Assembly (NCBI GenBank): GCA_014925825.1
Contig: JACGCK010000091.1
Location: 1 to 64,000 of the forward strand
Length of the DNA stretch: 64,000 nucleotides
DNA from: Pholiota molesta
Lineage: Eukaryota; Basidiomycota; Agaricomycetes; Agaricales; Strophariaceae
Direction: 5' to 3'
The translations under genes were made by a program, and so were the position numbers. A model generated the notes under the pieces. That model searched no databases. It was given only the letters and a program-made list of their open reading frames with translations, and was not told the origin of the DNA. This document shows positions 17,081 through 29,486 of the stretch, in pieces; positions within the stretch are counted from its first letter, which is position 1, and each line of letters opens with the position of its first letter.

Positions 17081-17464
17081 CGTCACCGACGACGATGGTG
17101 ATGGTGGAGTGCTGGAGAAGGTAAGATGAAACTCCGCTTCATTTTCCGATACCACCAAATGGAAGCATAGACAAACAATGAATGACCGGCTTGCAACCGG
17201 CTGGCCCGGCTAAATGGGCGTCTAATCAATAGGTGCGTCCGTCGGTGCCGGTGCAAGTCTTTCGTGTGTATACAATGTACGCCTCGAAGCGTGATATCAT
17301 CCCGTCACATCGGAAGCTCCTCGAGAGGCTCCAAGCCATTACGCGATCGTCTTCACAAGATCATGATCTCAGTTAGAAAACAAGAGTCTGGATGTGAGTC
17401 ATGTCATTTCTCTTTCTGTAACTTGCACTGACCAACGTACATGCATCTCCAAACTTCTAAGACC
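17081..17464. promoter_or_regulatory. divergent promoter, SPT7 and dynamin
   Basis: This 384-nt interval separates the SPT7 start (minus) from the dynamin start (plus). It is a bidirectional promoter by position. An ATG at 17441, in frame with the dynamin start, is an alternative initiation site. Confidence 0.5.
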
Positions 17465-18390
17465 ATGTCGCCCTCGTCCTTTTCAGATTCGGAGTCGGAA
17501 ACTAGCCAACAGATCCGTCTCGCGACTCCGAACAACCCGTCGGAGAATGCCATTGGGCTCTCGAATCCCAAGTTGAGTCAAGGGCGACGAAGGATGTTGG
17601 ATCTTGTCAATAGATTGCTTAGCACTGGGTACGCCGTTTCTGTCACGCTTATTATCTTATTTCTCCTAATCATAAGCATGTTATAGGGTGCAGGTAGATA
17701 TTGACCTACCCCAGATTGCTGTCATCGGGTCTCAAAGCTCCGGCAAATCATCGCTCATCGAGTCAATTTCCGGTATCAAATTTCCCAGAGCCTCAGGAAC
17801 CTGTACGCGGTACGTTGCTGCTCATCTCGCCTTTGGCGAAAGGATCATCATCTCATCAGCATTCACGTCCTCGATAGATGCCCTTTGGAATGTCGCCTGG
17901 CTCGAAGTGACGCCCCTTGGCAATGCATCGTTTCGCTCCGTTTTATCACTGACCCAGACGGTCGGCCCCTCGGACAAGCGCGTAACGAGCAATTTGGCGG
18001 CATCATATACGACAAGAACGAAATAGAGGACCGCATTCGTCGTGCCCAGACCGCAATCTTAAACCCGAAGACTCCCGCGACGTGGTTCTTGACTGATAGC
18101 ACGGAAACGGGCATGTCAGAACTGAGCTTTTCGCTCAATGCGGTCACTTTGCAGATTAGTGGTCCTGATGTAGCCGATCTTTCATTTTGTGATCTTCCTG
18201 GTGCGCTTGCTTTACCTTTGCTTTGAGGCTCTGATATTGACGTTGGCCTTTTTCATATCAAAAGGATTGATTGCGAGTGTGAGTAGCAATGGCAGAAGCC
18301 ACAAAGACGATATAGCCCTCGTTGAGAATTTGGTCGCTACCTACATCAAGAAACAAAGCTGCATCATTTTATTGACTGTTGCTTGCGAAA
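17465..18390 (+). pseudogene. dynamin-family GTPase, 5' half (split by Helitron)
   Basis: This is the N-terminal GTPase half of a dynamin/Mx-like large GTPase of the mushroom-expanded group. It starts MSPSSFSDSESE (an in-frame ATG also exists at 17441). The G1 P-loop is [15 protein letters not shown]; the switch region with the G2 threonine is SGTCTR; G3 is DLPG. The exon LVENLVATYIKKQ...ILLTVACE ends at a consensus donor (A|GTAAAT at 18391). The next exon lies 33 kb away at 51477 and reads TDFEN, as expected for the family. This half is intact, but the gene cannot give a normal product because the intron now holds a Helitron and the 3' half has a stop and a frameshift. It could still express a truncated GTPase domain. 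Confidence 0.88.
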
Positions 18391-18475: not shown

Positions 18476-18663
18476 TGGACAAAAAAATTTCGACAAATAT
18501 GTTTAATATTTCTGCACTATTTTAACTCAGAATGTGTTTTACTGCTCTCAGAGAGACGTAGGTAAACACACTTCGAAGGAGTGCTCACTGTGCTGGTGCT
18601 TTTGCAACCGATTCTTACCCCTTTTGGGAGAGGAGAAGACGTAAATACGGCTGCTTTTTGGCC

Positions 18664-18765
18664 GTGGGTACCTGGCTTTTTTTAGGACCTACTTTTGCGC
18701 TTATTGGGGAGCTTGCGGCAGCTGCGCCACTCCCAGGGAGGTCCCGGCCCGACCAATTCCGGCCA
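18664..18765 (+). repeat. left subterminal inverted repeat of the three-gene unit
   Basis: It carries GTGGGTACCTGG, GGGGAGC (18706-18712), CCACTCCCAGGGAGGTCC (18727-18744) and AATTCCGGCCA (18755-18765). Each has an inverted counterpart at 28628-28756 with similar spacing. Confidence 0.65.
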
Positions 18766-19171
18766 CAGGACCGAACACGACCGAGGCGACCAATTTTGAC
18801 CGAATTGCACCGAATGAACAAGCACGTGCGGCGCTGTGGCTGTCCGAGATGACGCAAGCCCAAGCCGTCCAGCGCCCAACGCCCTCGCCACTTTGAGTGA
18901 TTGGCGCCCACTTACCCCTTATCCCACATCACACACCCGAGACCACACGTCGAGAACTCGCCATCGTGCCACCCCTTCCTGCGCTGACCATCATAGACAA
19001 CGACGACGAGAGCCAGCGCAGAGGTTCAACATCCTCCTAATGGGCTCAGGCTCCATGCGATCGTCGATCGACGGCTCAACATGAGCCAACCTAAGTGCAA
19101 GAGGAACGAAGAAAAGATCCACTGCATCACCAACACCACCACCACCGACATCAAGAGCTCTATCTACCACG

Positions 19172-21806
19172 ATGGGAATTAAATCATTCTGGCAGGTAAG
19201 TAGATTATATTTCCTATCCAAACCTACCTAACTCTTTAGGCAGCTACTCGACGATATCAAAGAGAGCAAATCCTTGCTCGCCATGGCAGTAGACCATCGT
19301 TTGCGAGCGCAATCTACTGGGATATCAGGCAGAGATGCCACGCTGAGATTGGGGGTTGACATGGGGTGAGTTTTCCGTACATTTTTACTGATTACTTTGC
19401 TAAATTCCCCCTTTTGCGCGTGCAGGACTTGTGTCACCGAATGCAATGCTGCGGCATCAAAACCTGGGGTGCGCAACCCACAAGCCGGCGGTGGCTTGTA
19501 TATTTTCTTCAAAAAGCTAGCCGAATTTACCAAGGCCCCCGTCAATCTCGTATTCGTACTCGATGGCCCGGAGCGACCGCCTGTTAAACGCGGTCACGAA
19601 GTGCGAGATCGGCCAGTTTGGTGGATTGAACCTGCTGTGCAGCTTATCGACATGTTCGGCCATCACATCCATCGGGTAAGCCCCTCTCTCAACGAATGTA
19701 TGTAGTACCGTTCGCATATTAACTCCAAGTTCCATCCATGCAGGCGCCTGGGGAAGCCGAAGCTGAGCTCGCTAGACTCAATTCAGAGGGATATGTACAT
19801 GCTATCATCACATGTGATAGCGATGCTTTTCTTTTCGGGGCACAGTTACTCTTGCGAAGGTCGGTAACGTCATTATACCTCTATTCAAGCATTTTTTAAC
19901 TTGACTATTTCTTGTGCAGTATTTCAAAGTGCGACAAAAGCTTCCCCGATGAGTACTCGCTGTATTCAGCAAATAGACCAGACTTCCCACTGACGCAGGG
20001 AGGAATGCTGCTGTATGCGCTCCTCTGTGGCAGCGACTATGACCATGGACTTGCAGGATGTAAGGCTGAGCACGAGTGCACTCGCGAGTTACTCGCACTC
20101 GCAGCTGCGAGTATTTTGGATGACAAAATCGATACTCGCACTCGCACGAGTATTTGCCTGCGAGTACTTGTACTTGCGAGTCAAGTACTTGCATGCTCAC
20201 AAGTACTTGCGAGTATTAGGGTTTTAGGGTTAGGGTTCTGCCATACACGAGTATTTACGAGTACTTGTAAGTATACTTACAAGTACTCATGATTACTTAC
20301 ATTTTTCTGCATTCAGAGAGACTGGGAATGTCAGTAAAATAAGAAACCACTGATTTAATTATAACTTAATCAGATCTTGTTCAATTGATAAGATAAAAAA
20401 TGTGTTTTGTAGATATGTATGTCATCTAATTATGCGCAAATTTGCAAAAGGTACGAATGCATAACGGCTGAAATATGGGCAAAAGCGTTTTTAAGCACTC
20501 AATACAATGAGCTGATACTAAAGTATAAATATCTCCATCATTTCCCATGCTAAAAATATGATTTTGTTATTGTTCAAAAGGGGTTTTAGTGCCCTACAAT
20601 GCTAAAAATATTTTTATTAAATATTTATGGGGACACAAGTACTTGTGGCAAGTACTTGTGTCCTCCCAATGCCAGACTCGCACTCACAAATACTCGCAGG
20701 CCCAAGTAACTCGCACTCGCGAGTATATTACTCACGAGTATTCTCACGAGTTTACTTGCAAGTACTCATCTGGGACTCGCACTCGCGCTCAGCCTTAGCA
20801 GGATGTGGTCCAACGACATCGGTCGCTCTGGCGTGCTGTGGATTTGGAGATCAACTCCTGGATGCCTACCGTAGCCACCAGAGCGCCGACTTCGAACGCT
20901 TTCTTCGCAAATGGCGACCTGCCGTCCAATCAGAACTACTGACAAACTCTCAGCAGTTCCTTTCCAGGCGCCAGTTTGACATCGCGGGAGAAATCTCGCA
21001 TGAATTCCCGGATCGTCGGACCCTCCAATACTATACAAACCCCATTACATCATGGTCTCCAGGACGGATCCCGCCTGATCCCAGTCAATGGGAGTTCACG
21101 CAGCCCTCAATTTTGTTGATTACTCATTTTTGTGAACAGTATTTTCACTGGACACCGCAAGTTATGAAGAAGAAATTCGAGGACCAGCTTTGGGAGGGCA
21201 TCTTCCTACAGATGCTATATTCAGTAAGATTCTGAATCTTTTTGCTCGCCGTTCCTTTAATTGATGGAATTAGCCCTCTGTAGCTTTTGACTCCGAGCAG
21301 GGTCGTCTTCAACTTCCAGTTCCATGCTTAAGATACGCAGATGTGTTGAGCCTATCGCACCGGGAACGCCTCGGCCAATATAGGCGGATGTTTGGAGCGG
21401 AGAAGCAGCCAAAGCTGGTGATTTCCACCGCTAACTTCATCGACTCTATGGGGCGTCGTTTTAGGGATAATGCAGGCAACACAGTAACCGTTTGGCCGCC
21501 GGCTTCTCTTCTTCCGCGGTCGCTGAATGAATGGACAAAAATCTCTCGTAAAACAAATAAGAAGGTGAATATCTCTCCATTTCTACTATTCTAGGCTGTA
21601 AGTGCTGTTGATATTAATCGAGTCTTAATTCTCAGGCTAGGCAAACACGTCAAGCGAAAAATCAAAATCACACCACAGCCCTGCTTGCACCATTTCCTGG
21701 ACCAAGCCAGGCACCCACTTCCAATTCTGCCAATGTTGGAGCTGACTATCCATGTGTTCAAATTGGAGAAAGGCATTGGTTTATTGACTTTACACTAGAT
21801 GACTGA
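19172..21806 (+). CDS. XPG/FEN/GEN1-like structure-specific nuclease (PIN-domain)
   Basis: This PIN-like nuclease of the Rad2/XPG/GEN1 superfamily cleaves branched DNA in known members. The first exon is MGIKSFWQ. N-region: LRLGVDMG (acidic residue), then FVLDGPERPPVKRG. I-region: APGEAEAELARLNSEG and IITCDSDAFLFGA, followed by ALLCGSDYDHGLAG and the helix-hairpin-helix GCGP. All the usual acidic residues are present, so activity is plausible. The C-terminal exons (AFDSEQGRLQLPVPCLRYAD; RRMFGAEKQPKLVISTANF) end DFTLDD at 21806. About eight introns are present. A 737-bp hAT-like element sits within the helix-hairpin-helix codons and appears to be spliced out (separate entry). Related single-domain proteins are widespread in Agaricomycetes. 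It lies convergent with the dioxygenase gene, 54 nt apart. Confidence 0.88.
20061..20797. mobile_element. hAT-like non-autonomous element acting as an intron
   Basis: 737 bp, bounded by an 8-bp duplication GCAGGATG (20053-20060 and 20798-20805). Terminal inverted repeats read TAAGGCTGAGCACGAGTGC (left) and TAAGGCTGAGCGCGAGTGC (right, reversed). The interior is full of ACTCGCGAGT and CAAGTACTTG palindromes and has a short TTAGGG-like patch (20218-20238); it has no coding capacity. The last G of the left duplication plus TAAGG makes the donor GTAAGG. CCTTA plus the first G of the right duplication makes the acceptor TTAG. Splicing 20060-20798 keeps frame and adds two residues (Ser-Gly) to the nuclease. 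Confidence 0.85.
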
Positions 21807-21860
21807 TCTTCACAAAATGTACTATGTATGCTGAAATCTGTACAAAATTTGAAACTACCT

Positions 21861-23339
21861 TTATTGAAAACCTGAAACATATGGAATCTTTCCCATGTCT
21901 AAATCTTTGAATTTGGAAAGTAAGCCTAAGGCTCGACTCCATCTGCCTGCTCTCATTGCCTGGGCCTTCTCAAAACGTAATCTATCTTCTTGTCTTAGTA
22001 ATTTGTCTGTTCGGAATCCGTTCTCAGCATAACGGAAGATACTTCCTGCGCAATATTGTGTAATTGATACGCGTACATCGCCGTCGACAACCGGAGTGTT
22101 TGAATGCGTAATTGTCGCAGACGGAATTAAGATCGTGTAGGCATGAGGAAACTCTACGATTAGCTTCAGCTCCCAAAGGATGAGATGTCCTCCTCGCGTG
22201 TGGTCAAATTCTCCAAGGGCTGTGATCGCACACCAACCATACGGACAATTTTTAACATCCCGGTGTTGCTCACAGCAAACGTTGCGGAAATTACATGCTG
22301 TCGTGGGGAATATTGTCTTCTCAGTGGTGCGTTTCAGCTCCGGGTAACGCGCTAAGAGCTGTTCAATATAAGATTTCTGGTGTCTATACACCCCTGGATT
22401 CCAGAATGCAAAAGACGCTAAGAAACAAGCCGTGTGTGAGCTGAGCTTTTGATGCCTGGGCAGCAAGACTAGAACACACCATTTTGAAAGCCGGATATCC
22501 TGGCAAAGCCTCGAGACTTGGTAATCCGGCGTATTGTTTTCTCATGGTGGCGACTATCGAGGTTGATTGGATGCTTGAAGCCATGAGGAAGTGTGAAGCC
22601 AAAATTAACGGCTGGAAAGTCGCCTCGTTTGTGGCCCAGCTCTTCCTTGGTAAATCTTTTTGAACTGGATTCAGCGATGATTATTTTGAAAAGTTCGTGG
22701 GTGTGTTCATCATATGTAAGATCCTGGGGAGGGGCGCCAGCAATAACCGCTATGACGCGCCTTTCACTATCGAGTATAGGCTGCGGGAGCCTCGAAGGAA
22801 TACTGCGCAATCAATTTAGACGAAATATAAAACATCAATACAGGGAAACATACCCGTTCTCGCCACAAGAAATGTATTGGAAGCCGTCATCGATTAGACG
22901 CTGAATGTCTGGTGCTTTGGTGGGATTCTGTGGGACTGGCTTTCTCAGGGCAGCGTATGCTCCGCTTTCAACTGGTAGACTTGCGGTTTCGAGTGCTGAA
23001 TTGACGCTTTTCGCACTGTCCAGGTATTTTCCCGCTGCACTTGGGTATCCGTGAATGAGAATGGCCTTTTCCCTTGCAGCACGTCGTTTCTTGTGCTGCC
23101 GTGATGAGGTTGCACCCAATGTTGGCTTTCCAAAGACTTGCATAGGCGCTTTAACACTTGGAGCCCGGGGTGTAGCTTCTAGAATTCAGATATTAGACCA
23201 AATCAAAGTATTATTACCAATGTTACTTACCAGGATCCTGTTTGTCGTCGTCTTCATCCTCCAGATCAATGGCATTGCGAAGAAGAGCAGAAAAGTCAGC
23301 CTCTGGGGATGCCAACACAGGAAATATTGCCAGCGACAT
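21861..23339 (-). CDS. TET/JBP-like 2-oxoglutarate/Fe(II) dioxygenase
   Basis: This resembles the fungal TET/JBP family, whose studied members oxidise 5-methylcytosine in DNA. It starts MSLAIFPVLASPEADFSALL. The catalytic double-stranded beta-helix lies in the last exon. The HxD motif is EQHRDVKN, followed by PYGWCAITALGEFDHTRGGHL. The second iron histidine lies in PSATITHSNTPV, and the 2-oxoglutarate arginine in GDVRVSITQY with the family-typical FRYAENGFRT after it. The upstream exons carry a GFQYISCGENG segment and FPAVNFGFTLPHGFKHP, seen in this mushroom group. Four exons; GT-AG junctions restore frame; the gene looks intact. It ends SGFQ. TET/JBP genes are known to travel with KDZ transposons in basidiomycetes; here the partner transposase looks different. 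Confidence 0.82.
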
Positions 23340-24304
23340 TATCTAAACGATGTATAGTATAATTTAGTAAATGTCCTAGTAATATATGGCAGAAACAGAT
23401 CGAGAGCCCGGGGACGAGCTCGATCGACCTGTGCAAGAAGACATACCGGCTACTATTTTGTTGGTGTTACGCGTACAACGTATAGTTACTAATGAAGTCT
23501 TCTAGGTGATCAGAATTGCGCACTGCTTCAGTGCTTGTTGACGTCTACATAGCATATAGTACAATTCAGTAAATGTGCTAACATTACGTGGCGGAAACAG
23601 GCTGAGAGCCCGGGAACGAGCTCGATCAGCCTGTGCAAAAAGACATACCGGCTATTTTGATGGTGTTGCACGTACTACTCTGTATAGTGGCGAGGTTTTC
23701 TAGGCAATGAAAGGCGCGCTGCTTTAGCGCTTGCTGGCGTTGGAAGTTTCAAGGCGATGGAGTTGGAAAAGTACGAAGTCAAACGTTGAAGTTGATTGTT
23801 TATTGTGACCCTAGTGTGGGGTTGATTAATGACTTCAGCGCCGGCGTAAGTAAGTATGTACGTTCAGACTTCACTCTCTGCTTCCTCTCGTAAGTCGTCA
23901 ACTCTCGCGTTATCAAAATATAGCAAGCTAATTCAAGTTATATAGCTATGCCAGTATGCATGGCCCAAGTCGAACGCCGCGAGATTGCCCAATCGGAGCC
24001 GACAACATCCCTGGACTCTCCTGTAAACCTATTTCACGGTGCTAAATCACAACAGTAAGTGTTAATCTCATTTGTGCAGATCTTGCTAATCTGAGCTGTA
24101 TAGATCTTAATGCTGTCCCTGACAGCCAAGCGAGAACTCGACGCTCAGGGCAGCGTTTAAAGTACAGTGACGCCATACGGATTAAGATAATTCCTCAGCA
24201 TTTCAGAAATTAGGGGCCGCCATTAATATAGGTCCGCTCATCGTCTTGCTGGAAGAAATTTTCCCTTTCTTAACACCTTCAATACTCTCTAGAGAATCAC
24301 TGCT
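23340..24304. promoter_or_regulatory. divergent control region, dioxygenase and transposase
   Basis: 965 nt between the dioxygenase start (minus) and the transposase-like start (plus). It holds a two-copy tandem repeat with hairpins (separate entry). The remainder (23750-24304) has no long open frame. Confidence 0.5.
23351..23745. repeat. two-copy ~202-bp tandem repeat with covarying hairpin
   Basis: The copies are offset by 202 nt and share AGTAAATGT, GAGAGCCCGGG-ACGAGCTCGATC, AAGACATACCGGCTA and a TTCTAGG block. In each, a stem encloses the CCCGGG core: arms 23396-23403/23424-23431 and 23598-23605/23626-23633. Between copies two stem base pairs change on both sides (T-A to C-G and C-G to T-A), and a mismatch is repaired. 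This suggests the hairpin itself matters. Confidence 0.7.
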
Positions 24305-27300
24305 ATGTCGCTGCAATCAGATGTCTTCGAGCCGAGCGTTATACTTGGCATTCTCAAAGGGTTAGAAAATTCGGCTTCTGCTAAAGAAACCTTTGAAAAA
24401 AATTGGAAGGCTTCCGTACGTTTATTATTTATCAGTCAAGGTTTCAGCTTTGCTTAATATTATATCAACTAGGTAAAGAAACGTATAGAGTCTTGGAAAA
24501 AGCACAAAGACAACAAGTCTGTGCCGGCATTTCAGCTGGACTGGGAGGCCCATATCGTTGAATACGTCGATTATCTGCATTCAAGACTTGCTGTTCACGG
24601 AAATTCCAGCACCAGCGCTAAGAAGATACCGCGGATTCTCCACAAGAGCATTCCGCTCCTTGGGCCTCGCTTTTCCCCGCCAACCTTCCTGCACTACATG
24701 CGCCGAGACATAACTCCTGCGATACACCCGGAATATGCATACATGAAGCCCCTCACTGTTGTACACCCGGTTTTTTTCCCGATACTTGCTCAATGTCCGC
24801 AATGCGAGTCGTCATCCGAGATCCGATGGGATGGGTGGAATGGGACCGGCGGACGCAGCGTCCATGGCGTTCGTTTCAATGAAAGGACAATTGGCTATCA
24901 GTTACGATGCAAGAATTGCAAGACGGCAGCTGAGAATGCGACCAGAACTTCCAGTGATTCCCCTGACATTGGGTATTGCTTTGCTACGACGAATTATGAA
25001 TTTTGGGAAAAATGGGAGCATTGGAGGATTCCGAGTAAGTTTACCTTTCCATGTCAAACTGGTCACTTACTCTGAGCTTCTTTCAAGGGAATATTCCGAT
25101 CTTCCGTCAGCGCACCGCTGTTACCCATGAGCTATTCGATTTGATAATAGAACTGCGCCTATCTTCGACTGCTGGAGGCCTGGAAGAACATCTCAAACGT
25201 GCGGACTCAATTCTAGCTAATCTACGCATATATTGATGTACTTATTTTCTATTCTAATAGAGCTACATTTACTCGAGCATAAGCAACGCATGCTCGAGTA
25301 TCTTTCATACTTTGAATCCGCACGCCCAAATCCGTTTATGAGGAACAACCTTCAGCACTTTTCCCCACCAATAAATGAGGAAGGCTACGGCGATTCTTTT
25401 ATTTCAAATGATCTTATAAAACATCTATACTTGGATTTTATCGCGAAGGTCAGACAAACTGAATCTATTGAGTACTGCAAGACCAGAACAGGTAAGGGTT
25501 GAGAAATTACTACGTCGTCCTTTACTCACATCATTCAAAGCAAAATCTCTGTCTTTAGACAATACATTCAAATCAGGAGGAAAGGCAACGCTCGTCGGAA
25601 AGGATGGGCAGCGTTCAAATCCACTGAAAGGCGGTATTCTGAGTGCAATAAATGAAGAAGGGGAGGGAGTTGCATGGGTAAGCCGATGATTACATCGTTA
25701 TATCTTTTCTAATTCTTATTTCAATCTCTACAGCGATTTTGCAGCAGCAATTCACCCGCTGAAACACGCGAGCTATTGCAAGGCCTCGGAAAGCGACATG
25801 AGTATCTGGGACTTCCTAAACCATCCGCTGTCATCGTCGACAACTGTTGTCAAGTGCAGCGATACGTCCGCGAGGGCCTTGGCCCAGATACTGCTGTGGT
25901 TTTGGATGTCTACCATTTCATGATGCGGTTAGTCACAGTCTTCCAAACATTCTTAAAATGCTTATTTATTTCTGAATACTAATGTACTACAACTTTTTAG
26001 ATATAGCACTGTAATATTCAATGGCACAAAAAATCCTCACCGCGCAGAGGTCCTGGTTGATATTCGTGATGCAATTATCAAAACGCCAGCTATAAAGAAT
26101 GTTCCCGCAACGTACTGGACGCAGCCTGAGCAAGAAGCCAACATCATTAAAGCCTACGATAAATGGCTTAAGCACGGCGGCATATGGACGGCTGCTTCTG
26201 GAAAGGTATAACCTTTTAATCGAGCAGCTTTATTGACGTTGACTTACTTTATAATCTAGGTCCACTCTGATCAGCTGGAGCACGTTCGAAGAGGGTGCTT
26301 ATCAAGGCCCCGCGAAGATATTGCCATGGACGGCAGCCGCATAGAGGGTTCTCACAAGGCGTGGAATTCACTTCAACGCGCGCAACCTAGCGGTATTGAG
26401 GTGTATGCAGGCCTCGCGCATGACTTTTTTCTTCGACGAAACATTCGTGTTGGTTCATCGCGCATCAAGAACAAGCGCCAGATCAATTCCAGCGATTTTG
26501 TTGCATCTACCCATTCATCCCACCACGTACAGCTCGTGAACCATATCGCCAAATTATTCAATTCGCTGTATGAAAAGGAGCCGACCACATCGAAAAACAA
26601 ACTCCACAAATACCCAACCCTGCCGTCAGTTCCAGTCGATGAAATGATTGGATTAGTGAGGTCCGAGCACACCTTGACCTTCGGAGGCCTTATCAGTATT
26701 AAGGAGGAGGTACCTGAATCGGAAACTAATATCCTGCTCGACGACCTTGATTCACAGATTGCGGAGATAGACCAAGCACGATTTAACAAAATGCTGGGTA
26801 TAGATGAGCGCCTCCTCTCTATCCAACTTGGAAAGCCCGAGGTTTCTATTACCACAACCTCGTCTGTTTCTGTGAGTGCGGTGAAAACTTTGTCTAGTGC
26901 GACGAACCCGCCGACGATGGCATTAGCATCCGCTTCCACATTGACACCCAAACCTGCCAGTTCACTTGTTGCGCCATCGAGTCTGAAAAGGAAGGAATGC
27001 GCCCCTCACATTGCGACTAACTCGTGGGCATCCGATATCCGAAGCACCGATAATCTTCCAAATTCGAAGCGTAGGCGGCATATGGCCTTACCAGGATCGT
27101 CTGGAGTCCTCGAGCTTGATTCAGATGACTCTACACCAGAGCCTGATATCGTGAGTACTACGGCTGTTATTTTCAACATTTTTGGACTGTATTCTAATAT
27201 ATTTACTCAAGGCGTCCTCAAACAGTATGGATGCGATTGATTGCGAACCATTGCACACAGTTAAAGCCAGTGACGCATGCATATCCCTTCCAAATAATCC

Positions 27301-28461
27301 ATCGACAAATACTCCAACGTTGAACACATTCTTCAAGATCCAGAGTCAGAAACCAAGCAATACTCCACCGGTGCAACCAGCTGCTCAGGCGTCGTCATCT
27401 AAGACTACGCTGTCGCTAGAGATGCTTCAGCGCCCACTTCCGAAGCCTACCAAGTTCCTAACACGATCTCAGGTGCTATTCTCCATTGGAACTTCTGTCG
27501 ACCCTCAAGAACTCCGAATCGCCGAAGGTGATGAGTTCTTTCTCTTTATGGATATGCGCGCCGAATTCCAGTGGATATCGTATGCAATGACTGGGTCAAA
27601 GTGGGCTGCTGCTACCAACGTCTACAACAAGCGTCTAGATGATTTGGGGAAGAAAAAGAATCTCCGGTTCATCAAGAAGAATCCACGCGCATTAGTTGAC
27701 AAGCTCAACGAGGTTGAGGCGCAGATTAACAACAGGATTATCAAAGAAAACTACCGCTGTACGTGCACTCTATATTTCCTTCTTGAGTCTTTATACTAAT
27801 AAATCTCATTTTATATTGCAGCTCAAAATGGAAGTGAATCTTTCTGGCTAAAGCATTGCCATTCTGTCGCTGGATTTTCCAAGACAGAGAGCGCCGATGA
27901 GCTTTCTCAGAAAAAGGTATATATTTTCCAAACATCCTCGATTTAAGAGCTAACATTGATATACTATAGCGCAAACCTGCCGTTTGTAAACGATGCAAGG
28001 TAATCATGTACCTGAAAGATGGCAAGCCCGAGGACAACCACAAGAGGGGTGTCTGCGCCGATGGCGTTGCTTCAGTACCCAAGCCTTGCGAAATACCCGA
28101 GTGGGCCAAATACGGCGACCATGCTGACTTTATACATCCTGCATGGCCGCAGCCCGAGGATTTGTTCAGCAAAGGCAAGTACTTTCATGCCGCCAAATTC
28201 CTATTTGCTGTGCGCAATCTCTACGAGAAGGTCTTGGAAACTACGGAACGGAGCAGCGGTGCTCCAGATCAAGCTGGAGCTGATTATCTGTCAGTAGAAG
28301 ATCGAGCATTTGCGCGTATGCTCAAAGCTCGAACAAGGTTAATGGATGGGCATGCTTATTTTCTTCTGTACGACCTTGAGCTCATTGGTGGGTCGTATGA
28401 ATCACTGCTCTCAGATTCAGAGACCGAGGGCCTCCGTTATCTTAGAATAGATTGTCTATAA
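24305..28461 (+). CDS. transposase-like protein with zinc-binding N-region
   Basis: A large multi-exon gene, start MSLQSDVFEPSVILG. Early Cys pairs (CPQCESSSEIRWDGW; YQLRCKNCKTA) form a likely zinc domain. This is followed by blocks resembling an RNase-H-type DDE core: SLDNTFKSGGKATLV (first Asp), KPSAVIVDNCCQVQRYV and VVLDVYHFMMRY (second Asp region). An acidic residue lies near DGSRIEGSHKAWNSLQRAQPS. The second half has a Ser/Thr-rich linker, LTRSQVLFSIGTSVDPQEL, and a Cys pair (CKRCK). It ends LRYLRIDCL. About nine introns; exons look intact. Similar proteins are common in Agaricomycetes; I do not know an experimentally defined superfamily for it. It is not KDZ by motif. The transposase role is inferred from motifs and from its place in an inverted-repeat-bounded unit. 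Confidence 0.7.
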
Positions 28462-29486
28462 TGCACTTTAATATTCTATTTTCACTGTTATTCAAGTCTT
28501 TAATATACATTACTTTATTTAAAATATACTTTTCCCCGAGGTACACCGCAGAGAACTGCTCGTGATGCTTTCACTGTGCTCGAACCAACCGAAATCCCTG
28601 GGCAACCCTCGGCGCTATTTTTGGGAATGGCCGGAATCTCCCTGGGCCAAACAACGCACCACAGGGCCTCCGGACCCCCCTGGGAATGACCAATTTTTCG
28701 AGCTTGCTCCCCTTTGAATAGCGACCCCGAATTTCCTTAAACCACGTGACCCACTGAGTTTGTTTCTGCTTGCTTCAAATGCTTTTGTCACCCCGTGAGA
28801 ATAATCCCATGGCTGTGCGCGCTGTGCTGCGGGTTCGTCAAACCCGGACACGGCTGTTTTGACCAGTGTCACATGCACTTTTTCCCACCTTCCAAAATGA
28901 GCCTCCTGCCTCTGATTTCGCAGCCTCTCGCAATCTTGGTTCAAACCAACTTCAAACTGTGTTCTCCTGCCTCAAACAAAATTCTGCAAGCCTTACAAAC
29001 TGTCAATATTGTGTAAATAATTTGTTTTGTTCTTTTTTTACCTACTCAATGCTATGATTTGTAGTGATTAATCAGCTTGACTTTACATTGAATCTGATCA
29101 AATCACTGCCTTGATCTCTTGATCTGCAGCAATCAGAAGTCTTAAGGTGTTCTGAAAATTTGGAGATTTTATCTTATCAATCTCTAATGCAAAACTTAGC
29201 TTTGAAAACCTGTCTCAAACCATCTGGCTTTTTCTCTTCTTACATACCTTTCACATTTAGCCTATTCTTTGTACCCTTGACCAGGCCGCAATCTTAAGTT
29301 GCCCGCCAGTTGAGGAAGACACTGCACGTCATTAGGGCTAGTGTGCTTGGGACAACCGCTTGGATCCTGGGCTAGATAGACTTCTTTTGTAGTCAATTTC
29401 AAACCGAACTAGTATACAATATACCAAACTAGTGTAGTAACCTATTTGGCAAGACTTGCGGTACAGGGCCAAATCCTTCCTACCGT
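28462..29486. other. right end of three-gene unit and Helitron backbone
   Basis: No gene. 28628-28756 is the right subterminal inverted repeat. From about 28870 to 29486 the AT-rich sequence is best read as Helitron backbone upstream of RepHel, because it resumes at 45845 once the LTR element is removed. Confidence 0.5.
28628..28756 (-). repeat. right subterminal inverted repeat of the three-gene unit
   Basis: Read on the minus strand it shows, in order, GTGGGTCACGTGG, AAGGGGAGC, TCATTCCCAGGGGGGTCC and GATTCCGGCCA, matching 18664-18765 with a few gaps. Confidence 0.65.

What the first reader, a model, noticed from the sequence alone, without database searches (positions are those of the whole stretch)
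18590..28868. Mobile unit combining XPG-like nuclease, TET/JBP-like dioxygenase and a non-KDZ transposase
Seen: three intact-looking multi-exon genes between degenerate inverted repeats. The nuclease keeps all acidic positions, the dioxygenase keeps HxD...H...R, and the transposase-like protein has Cys pairs and Asp blocks. Known: basidiomycete TET/JBP genes expanded with KDZ transposons. Inference: here a different transposase travels with a 5mC oxidase and a flap/junction nuclease. The unit could remove methylation from its own DNA and process strand ends during transposition. This is my best candidate for an undescribed system.
Basis: partly seen in the sequence, partly recalled or inferred. 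Interest (0 to 1): 0.88.

Follow-up and report, generated by a model that had tools for sequence, protein, structure and literature searches.

The report
Mushroom transposon with demethylase and nuclease
A ten-kilobase jumping gene in the mushroom Pholiota molesta carries its own transposase, a junction-cutting type of nuclease and a DNA-demethylation type of enzyme, and tandem copies of its relatives suggest it may move by a route best known from bacteria.

The parts
18709..18716 (.). left 8-bp target-site duplication GAGCTTGC
   Evidence: Identical to 28700-28707; 7 of 7 copies with both ends have 8/8 matching TSDs
18717..28699 (+). the complete transposon, 9,983 bp
   Evidence: Homology with other copies ends sharply at both termini
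18717..18738 (+). left terminus (GGCAGCTGCGCCACTCCCAGGG)
   Evidence: Same start in the 8 copies where a left end was located
19172..21806 (+). GEN1/XPG-type nuclease, 8 exons, 512 aa
   Evidence: Gene model; XPG_I E 1.3e-16; best solved matches 6grb and 5cnq, E 3.1e-31 and 3.7e-31
20061..20797 (+). 737-bp TIR element (MITE-like) in the nuclease gene, TSD GCAGGATG (20053-20060 and 20798-20805); the TSD/TIR borders supply GTAAG and TTAG splice sites
   Evidence: Gene model; 11 other near-full-length copies listed in the genome, 85-99% identical, with the same ends within 2 bp (40 of 193 candidates scored, so a lower bound)
21861..23339 (-). TET/JBP-type 2OG-Fe(II) dioxygenase, 4 exons, 437 aa
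24305..28461 (+). IS256/MULE-type DDE transposase, 11 exons, 1185 aa; D339, D414, D436xxH439, E540; Cys pairs at 145, 183 and 1028
   Evidence: Gene model; model of homologue P0043 matches ISCth4
28606..28699 (+). right terminus with repeated CCCAGGGA-like motifs, ending GGGAATGACCAATTTTTC
   Evidence: The 98-bp right end of copy C26 has 35 matches in the genome, this one among them; same end base in 8 of 8 copies
28700..28707 (.). right 8-bp target-site duplication GAGCTTGC

Best explanation
It is an autonomous-looking DNA transposon of the IS256/MULE clan in an agaric mushroom that has added a GEN1/XPG-type nuclease and a TET/JBP dioxygenase to its transposase. Shown by sequence: the unit is bounded, has moved with 8-bp TSDs, and its three genes are under purifying selection. 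Inferred: the dioxygenase oxidises 5mC (or 6mA) on the element's own DNA so that its genes are expressed and its ends are usable. The transposase then joins the 3' end of the right terminus to the strand 6 nt outside the left terminus, giving a branched figure-eight. The nuclease trims or resolves that branch and helps release a circle carrying a 6-bp spacer. The circle inserts elsewhere with an 8-bp TSD, or recombines with its donor copy to make head-to-tail arrays.
Confidence: 0.5

Rival explanations
1. Ordinary cut-and-paste MULE-like transposon carrying the same three genes; the head-to-tail arrays arose later by unequal exchange or replication slippage, and the nuclease helps repair excision sites or hairpin ends.
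For: Eukaryotic MULEs are generally described as cut-and-paste (recalled; a 2017 paper by Liu & Wessler to that effect is in the reference list of PMC7780238). 8-bp TSDs fit MULEs as well as IS256.
Against: Exchange between TSDs would leave 8-bp spacers; all 8 junctions have 6 bp. At C223 the spacer straddles the TSD and 3 extra bases, so it is set by distance from the element end and not by the TSD.
Confidence: 0.3
2. The nuclease and TET genes are passengers picked up by the transposon with no role in its life cycle.
For: C29 (no TET) and C130 (interrupted nuclease) still have both ends; TET relatives also sit near KDZ transposases in this genome, so capture is common.
Against: Fixed order and orientation in 6 loci and low pN/pS in all three genes near synonymous saturation.
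Confidence: 0.12
3. A new branch of Academ (AcademX type), the known superfamily that pairs a DDE transposase with a nuclease, that later gained TET.
For: Same pairing in kind: the two Academ lineages differ by an encoded helicase or nuclease (PMC10045372, passage); that the nuclease is of XPG type is recalled.
Against: AcademX makes 3-4 bp and AcademH 9-10 bp TSDs (same passage); here 8 bp in 7 of 7. Transposase homology could not be tested: no Academ sequence was at hand.
Confidence: 0.06
4. Not mobile: a host cluster of three genes duplicated by segmental events, with chance inverted repeats.
For: The terminal-repeat match alone is close to chance within single copies.
Against: Conserved termini and perfect 8-bp TSDs, all different, at 7 of 7 sites; non-autonomous copies sharing the ends.
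Confidence: 0.01

Closest known systems
TET+ DNA transposons of fungi (Kojima 2025, PMC12730594): 11 lineages including Kyakuja, Zisupton, Dileera, Plavaka, hAT7, IS3EU, EnSpm, ESTA and Helitron
   Same: A complete DNA transposon with TSDs encodes a TET/JBP dioxygenase; some carry a third protein
   Different: No MULE/IS256-type or Academ lineage among them; XPG, FEN1, PIN domain, MULE, Academ and Pholiota have 0 occurrences in the main text and MuDR only for other genes (supplements not seen). TET here has HxD, not the PE-type HxE, and by offset lacks the Asp337 of AG type
IS256 family / ISCth4 (PMC7780238)
   Same: Predicted fold of the transposase core, DDE plus C/DxxH, 8-bp TSD, 6-bp end-to-end spacer
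   Different: Eukaryotic, 11 exons, long extensions, accessory nuclease and TET, ends dissimilar in the outer 10 bp; spacer length and direction uniform here, variable there
Eukaryotic MULE/MuDR transposons (PF10551)
   Same: Weak profile match in 14 of 34 homologues, TSD length
   Different: No match in the window's own protein; short imperfect TIRs; nuclease and TET cargo
Academ (AcademX)
   Same: DDE transposase with an encoded nuclease
   Different: TSD 3-4 bp (PMC10045372 passage) against 8 bp; transposase relation untested
GEN1/Yen1 junction resolvases
   Same: Best solved match over residues 16-352, XPG_I domain, acidic residues
   Different: GEN1_C domain not detected; encoded by a transposon

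Membership tests
TET/JBP dioxygenase | HxD...H...R metal and 2OG ligands | tested here: met
   HRD, HSN and VRVS in the gene model; HxD kept in 6 of 7 TET copies of the trio family as printed, C26 not printed
TET/JBP dioxygenase | TET fold rather than AlkB/FTO or prolyl hydroxylase | tested here: met
TET/JBP dioxygenase | Oxidises 5mC in DNA | not testable with these tools
   No assay
AG-type TET (CcTET group) | Asp337 equivalent | tested here: inconclusive
   By ungapped offset from HxD the residue is Cys, and Gly331 is Asn (sequence, positions); no residue-level structural alignment was read; a TET profile found no PDB chain at E<=1
IS256/MULE clan transposase | RNase H-like DDE core with C/DxxH | tested here: met
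IS256/MULE clan transposase | 8-bp TSD (MULE 8-10 bp, recalled) | tested here: met
   7 of 7 copies 8/8; C57 and the C68 array also 8/8, C619 and C367 7/8
MULE (Pfam PF10551) | Profile match | tested here: inconclusive
   No family for the window protein P0001; 14 of 34 homologues weakly, best E 2.1e-4
KDZ (Kyakuja/Dileera/Zisupton) | KDZ transposase domain PF18758 | tested here: not met
   0 of 34 homologues at E<=1; the model works in this genome, 128 matches
AcademX | 3-4 bp TSD | tested here: not met
   8 bp in 7 of 7; definition from PMC10045372 passage
AcademX | Academ transposase homology | not testable with these tools
   Kojima 2020 is not held and no Academ sequence was available
GEN1/Yen1 resolvase | XPG-type catalytic acidic residues and XPG_I | tested here: met
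GEN1/Yen1 resolvase | GEN1_C domain | tested here: not met
   Absent at E<=0.1 in the window protein, P0165 and P0164; found in host-type control P0183
Copy-out/paste-in element | End-to-end junctions with a short spacer taken from the donor flank | tested here: met
   Genomic trace only, in non-autonomous relatives: 8 of 8 junctions 6 bp, 3 of 3 arrays match the left flank
Copy-out/paste-in element | Transposase makes figure-eights and circles | not testable with these tools
   Needs biochemistry

The most novel reading that the evidence does not exclude
A eukaryotic DDE transposon lineage that transposes by IS256-style asymmetric copy-out/paste-in through circles with a 6-bp spacer, and that carries its own GEN1-type nuclease to process the figure-eight and its own TET enzyme to escape methylation: a three-enzyme mobile system with no described equivalent in the searches I made.
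Probability: 0.38. Interest if true: 0.92.

Novelty: new variant of a known kind. Interest (0 to 1): 0.78.

Why it matters
It adds a transposon lineage outside KDZ to the small set that carries TET enzymes, and it pairs that enzyme with a junction-type nuclease under long-term selection. If the 6-bp junctions mean circles, then copy-out/paste-in, described in PMC7780238 as a major bacterial pathway, would have a eukaryotic representative. The role of a transposon-borne structure-specific nuclease would then become directly testable.

Tried and rejected
Single-copy inverted repeats gave many short pairs; the real ends came only from comparing copies. A KDZ assignment was rejected. Academ was considered because of the nuclease and set aside on TSD length. 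Pfam and PDB sequence searches placed neither the transposase nor the TET alignment firmly; folds were needed. The viral fold library gave one match at E<=0.001, an uncharacterised bracovirus protein, of no use. Two XPG+TET loci of another arrangement (C54, C224) showed no relative of this transposase within the 10 kb fetched at each. My first end pattern was badly chosen: 536 matches against 621 in the control, although exact GGGGAGCTTCCTCATTCC sites in it led to the non-autonomous copies. The right outer end of the C42 array was not found (L076). Literature: no paper in the library holds XPG+TET+transposon+basidiomyc or PIN domain-like+transpos+Agaricomycetes. No eukaryotic copy-out DDE element showed in the listings, which I saw only as titles and abstract starts, except PMC7780238 (abstract and passages). 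Absence from print is claimed only for those searches; most subscription journals, supplements and Repbase are not covered.

Full report
WHAT IS THERE. Between 18717 and 28699 lies a complete transposon of 9,983 bp. Three multi-exon genes fill it: a nuclease (19172-21806, +), a dioxygenase (21861-23339, -) and a transposase (24305-28461, +). In my spliced models all three read open through GT-AG introns to 512, 437 and 1185 aa. The host is Pholiota molesta: the database holds the transposase at 100% identity from that species (P0001). The genome held is 65.6 Mb in 625 contigs.

OTHER COPIES. Searching the same genome with each protein (counts are lower bounds) gives eight loci with the transposase. 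Six of them (window, C26, C130, C179, C378, C614) have all three genes, always nuclease forward, dioxygenase reverse, transposase forward. C29 has nuclease and transposase without TET. C609 has only the transposase, without its N-terminal part. A ninth locus, C12, has nuclease and TET and runs off the contig end. C26 and C130 are about 15.2 kb long; in C130 about 6 kb of extra DNA interrupts the nuclease gene, in C26 it lies between nuclease and TET. Open frames were modelled only for the window copy.

ENDS. Homology at the right side stops at the same base in all 8 copies compared (GGGAATGACCAATTTTTC or a close variant). The left side starts at GGCAGCT, GGCAACT or GGGAGCT in 8 copies. The 7 copies with both ends are flanked by seven different, perfect 8-bp duplications. 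The two ends share an inner CAT-CCCAGGG-like block but differ in the outermost 10 bp. The right end repeats CCCAGGGA-like motifs further in. As pure inverted repeats they are weak: in 3 of 7 copies the best local match did not exceed 200 shuffles.

AGE AND SELECTION. Against the window copy, pN/pS is 0.26-0.33 for TET (6 comparisons), 0.32-0.40 for the transposase (7) and 0.37-0.47 for the nuclease (7), with pS 0.66-0.83, near saturation (simple Nei-Gojobori on tblastn segments, stops and gaps dropped). The trio has therefore been kept as coding sequence over long divergence. C614 and C609 share 3,947 bp at 99.0%, ending at the right terminus, so some movement is recent.

THE NUCLEASE. It has XPG_I (E 1.3e-16) but no detectable GEN1_C, unlike the host-type control P0183. 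Its best solved matches, 6grb and 5cnq, are labelled nuclease-like protein (E 3.1e-31 and 3.7e-31); that these are Chaetomium GEN1 is recalled. Next come RAD2 (1.2e-11), human XPG, human GEN1 (1.4e-8) and FEN1 (1.1e-7). GEN1 of that fungus is described as highly selective for four-way junctions (PMC4270448, start of abstract in the listing).

HEAD-TO-TAIL ARRAYS. The 98-bp right end of C26 has 35 matches in the genome and its 149-bp left end 9, so non-autonomous relatives exist. TSDs were checked at C57 (8/8), C619 and C367 (7/8 each). Three loci carry tandem copies: C68 (4 copies of about 2.67 kb), C223 (3 copies spaced 2.71 kb) and C42 (4 left ends, spaced 6.6 kb). None of these places matched the three proteins. 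A genome-wide pattern of right end, free bases and left end gave 9 matches, against 0 for the reversed control. Eight are the array junctions, every one with a 6-bp spacer; the ninth, at C195, has a long gap and is taken as chance. In each array the spacer equals the 6 bp next to the left end of the whole array: GTGCTG (C68, outer TSD CTGTGCTG on both sides), GCGGGC (C223) and ACAACG (C42). At C223 three extra bases lie between the 8-bp TSD and the left end, and the spacer is still the 6 bp next to the element. The distance is thus measured from the element end, not from the TSD. The arrays are three independent cases only.

MECHANISM. In ISCth4 a 3' end of one terminus attacks flanking DNA a few nucleotides outside the other; replication turns the resulting figure-eight into a circle; a 6-bp spacer integrates best and TSDs are 8 bp (PMC7780238, abstract and passages). 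A title in its reference list says that IS256 can form tandem dimers and circles. The same two numbers, 6 and 8, appear here, with the right end joined to the left flank in 3 of 3 arrays. A difference: IS256 and ISCth4 spacers vary in length and either end can be the donor. I infer the same asymmetric step. A figure-eight is a branched junction, the kind of structure GEN1-type nucleases cut, which would give the nuclease a job. TET would counter methylation of the element, as Kojima proposes for other TET+ transposons (PMC12730594: abstract, parts 1-4 of 7, legends and word finds seen). None of these activities is shown.

OTHER SPECIES. One search compared a hand-typed part of the rows; reading the other rows by eye gave no further pair. 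Only the longest contig of each protein cluster is listed, so this is a weak test. No trio outside Pholiota could be shown, because other fungal assemblies were not searchable here.

NOVELTY. TET+ transposons are known in 11 lineages; none is MULE/IS256-type or Academ, and XPG, FEN1 and PIN domain have no occurrence in the main text of PMC12730594. I rate this a new variant of a known kind. The circle reading, if confirmed, would be the larger result.

Noticed in passing
20053-20805: A 737-bp TIR element sits inside a nuclease exon with TSD GCAGGATG; the TSD/TIR borders create GTAAG and TTAG, so splicing would remove it and leave the frame open with two extra residues. It looks like an intron made by a transposon insertion (introner-like); 11 near-full-length relatives are listed at 85-99% identity. 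Splicing is not shown; the NCBI model (P0163) reads partly into it.
   Followed up: partly
L062 (C54:16500-26499) and L063 (C224:109500-119499): A second association of an XPG-type nuclease and a TET gene, both in the same direction and without this transposase; same-contig pairs also at C90, C613 and C279 by coordinates.
   Followed up: partly
L062:5-493 (minus): ORF next to that second pair that by eye resembles a tyrosine recombinase; no Pfam match at E<=0.1.
   Followed up: partly
23353-23668: Two 114-bp direct repeats, 81% identical, starts 202 bp apart, between the dioxygenase start and the transposase; possibly regulatory.
   Followed up: no
17432-18226: ORFs just left of the element that by eye look like a dynamin-type GTPase gene.
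   Followed up: no
G000: C42, about 82-102 kb: 6.6-kb tandem copies that share this transposon's ends but gave no match to its three proteins; their content was not read.
   Followed up: no
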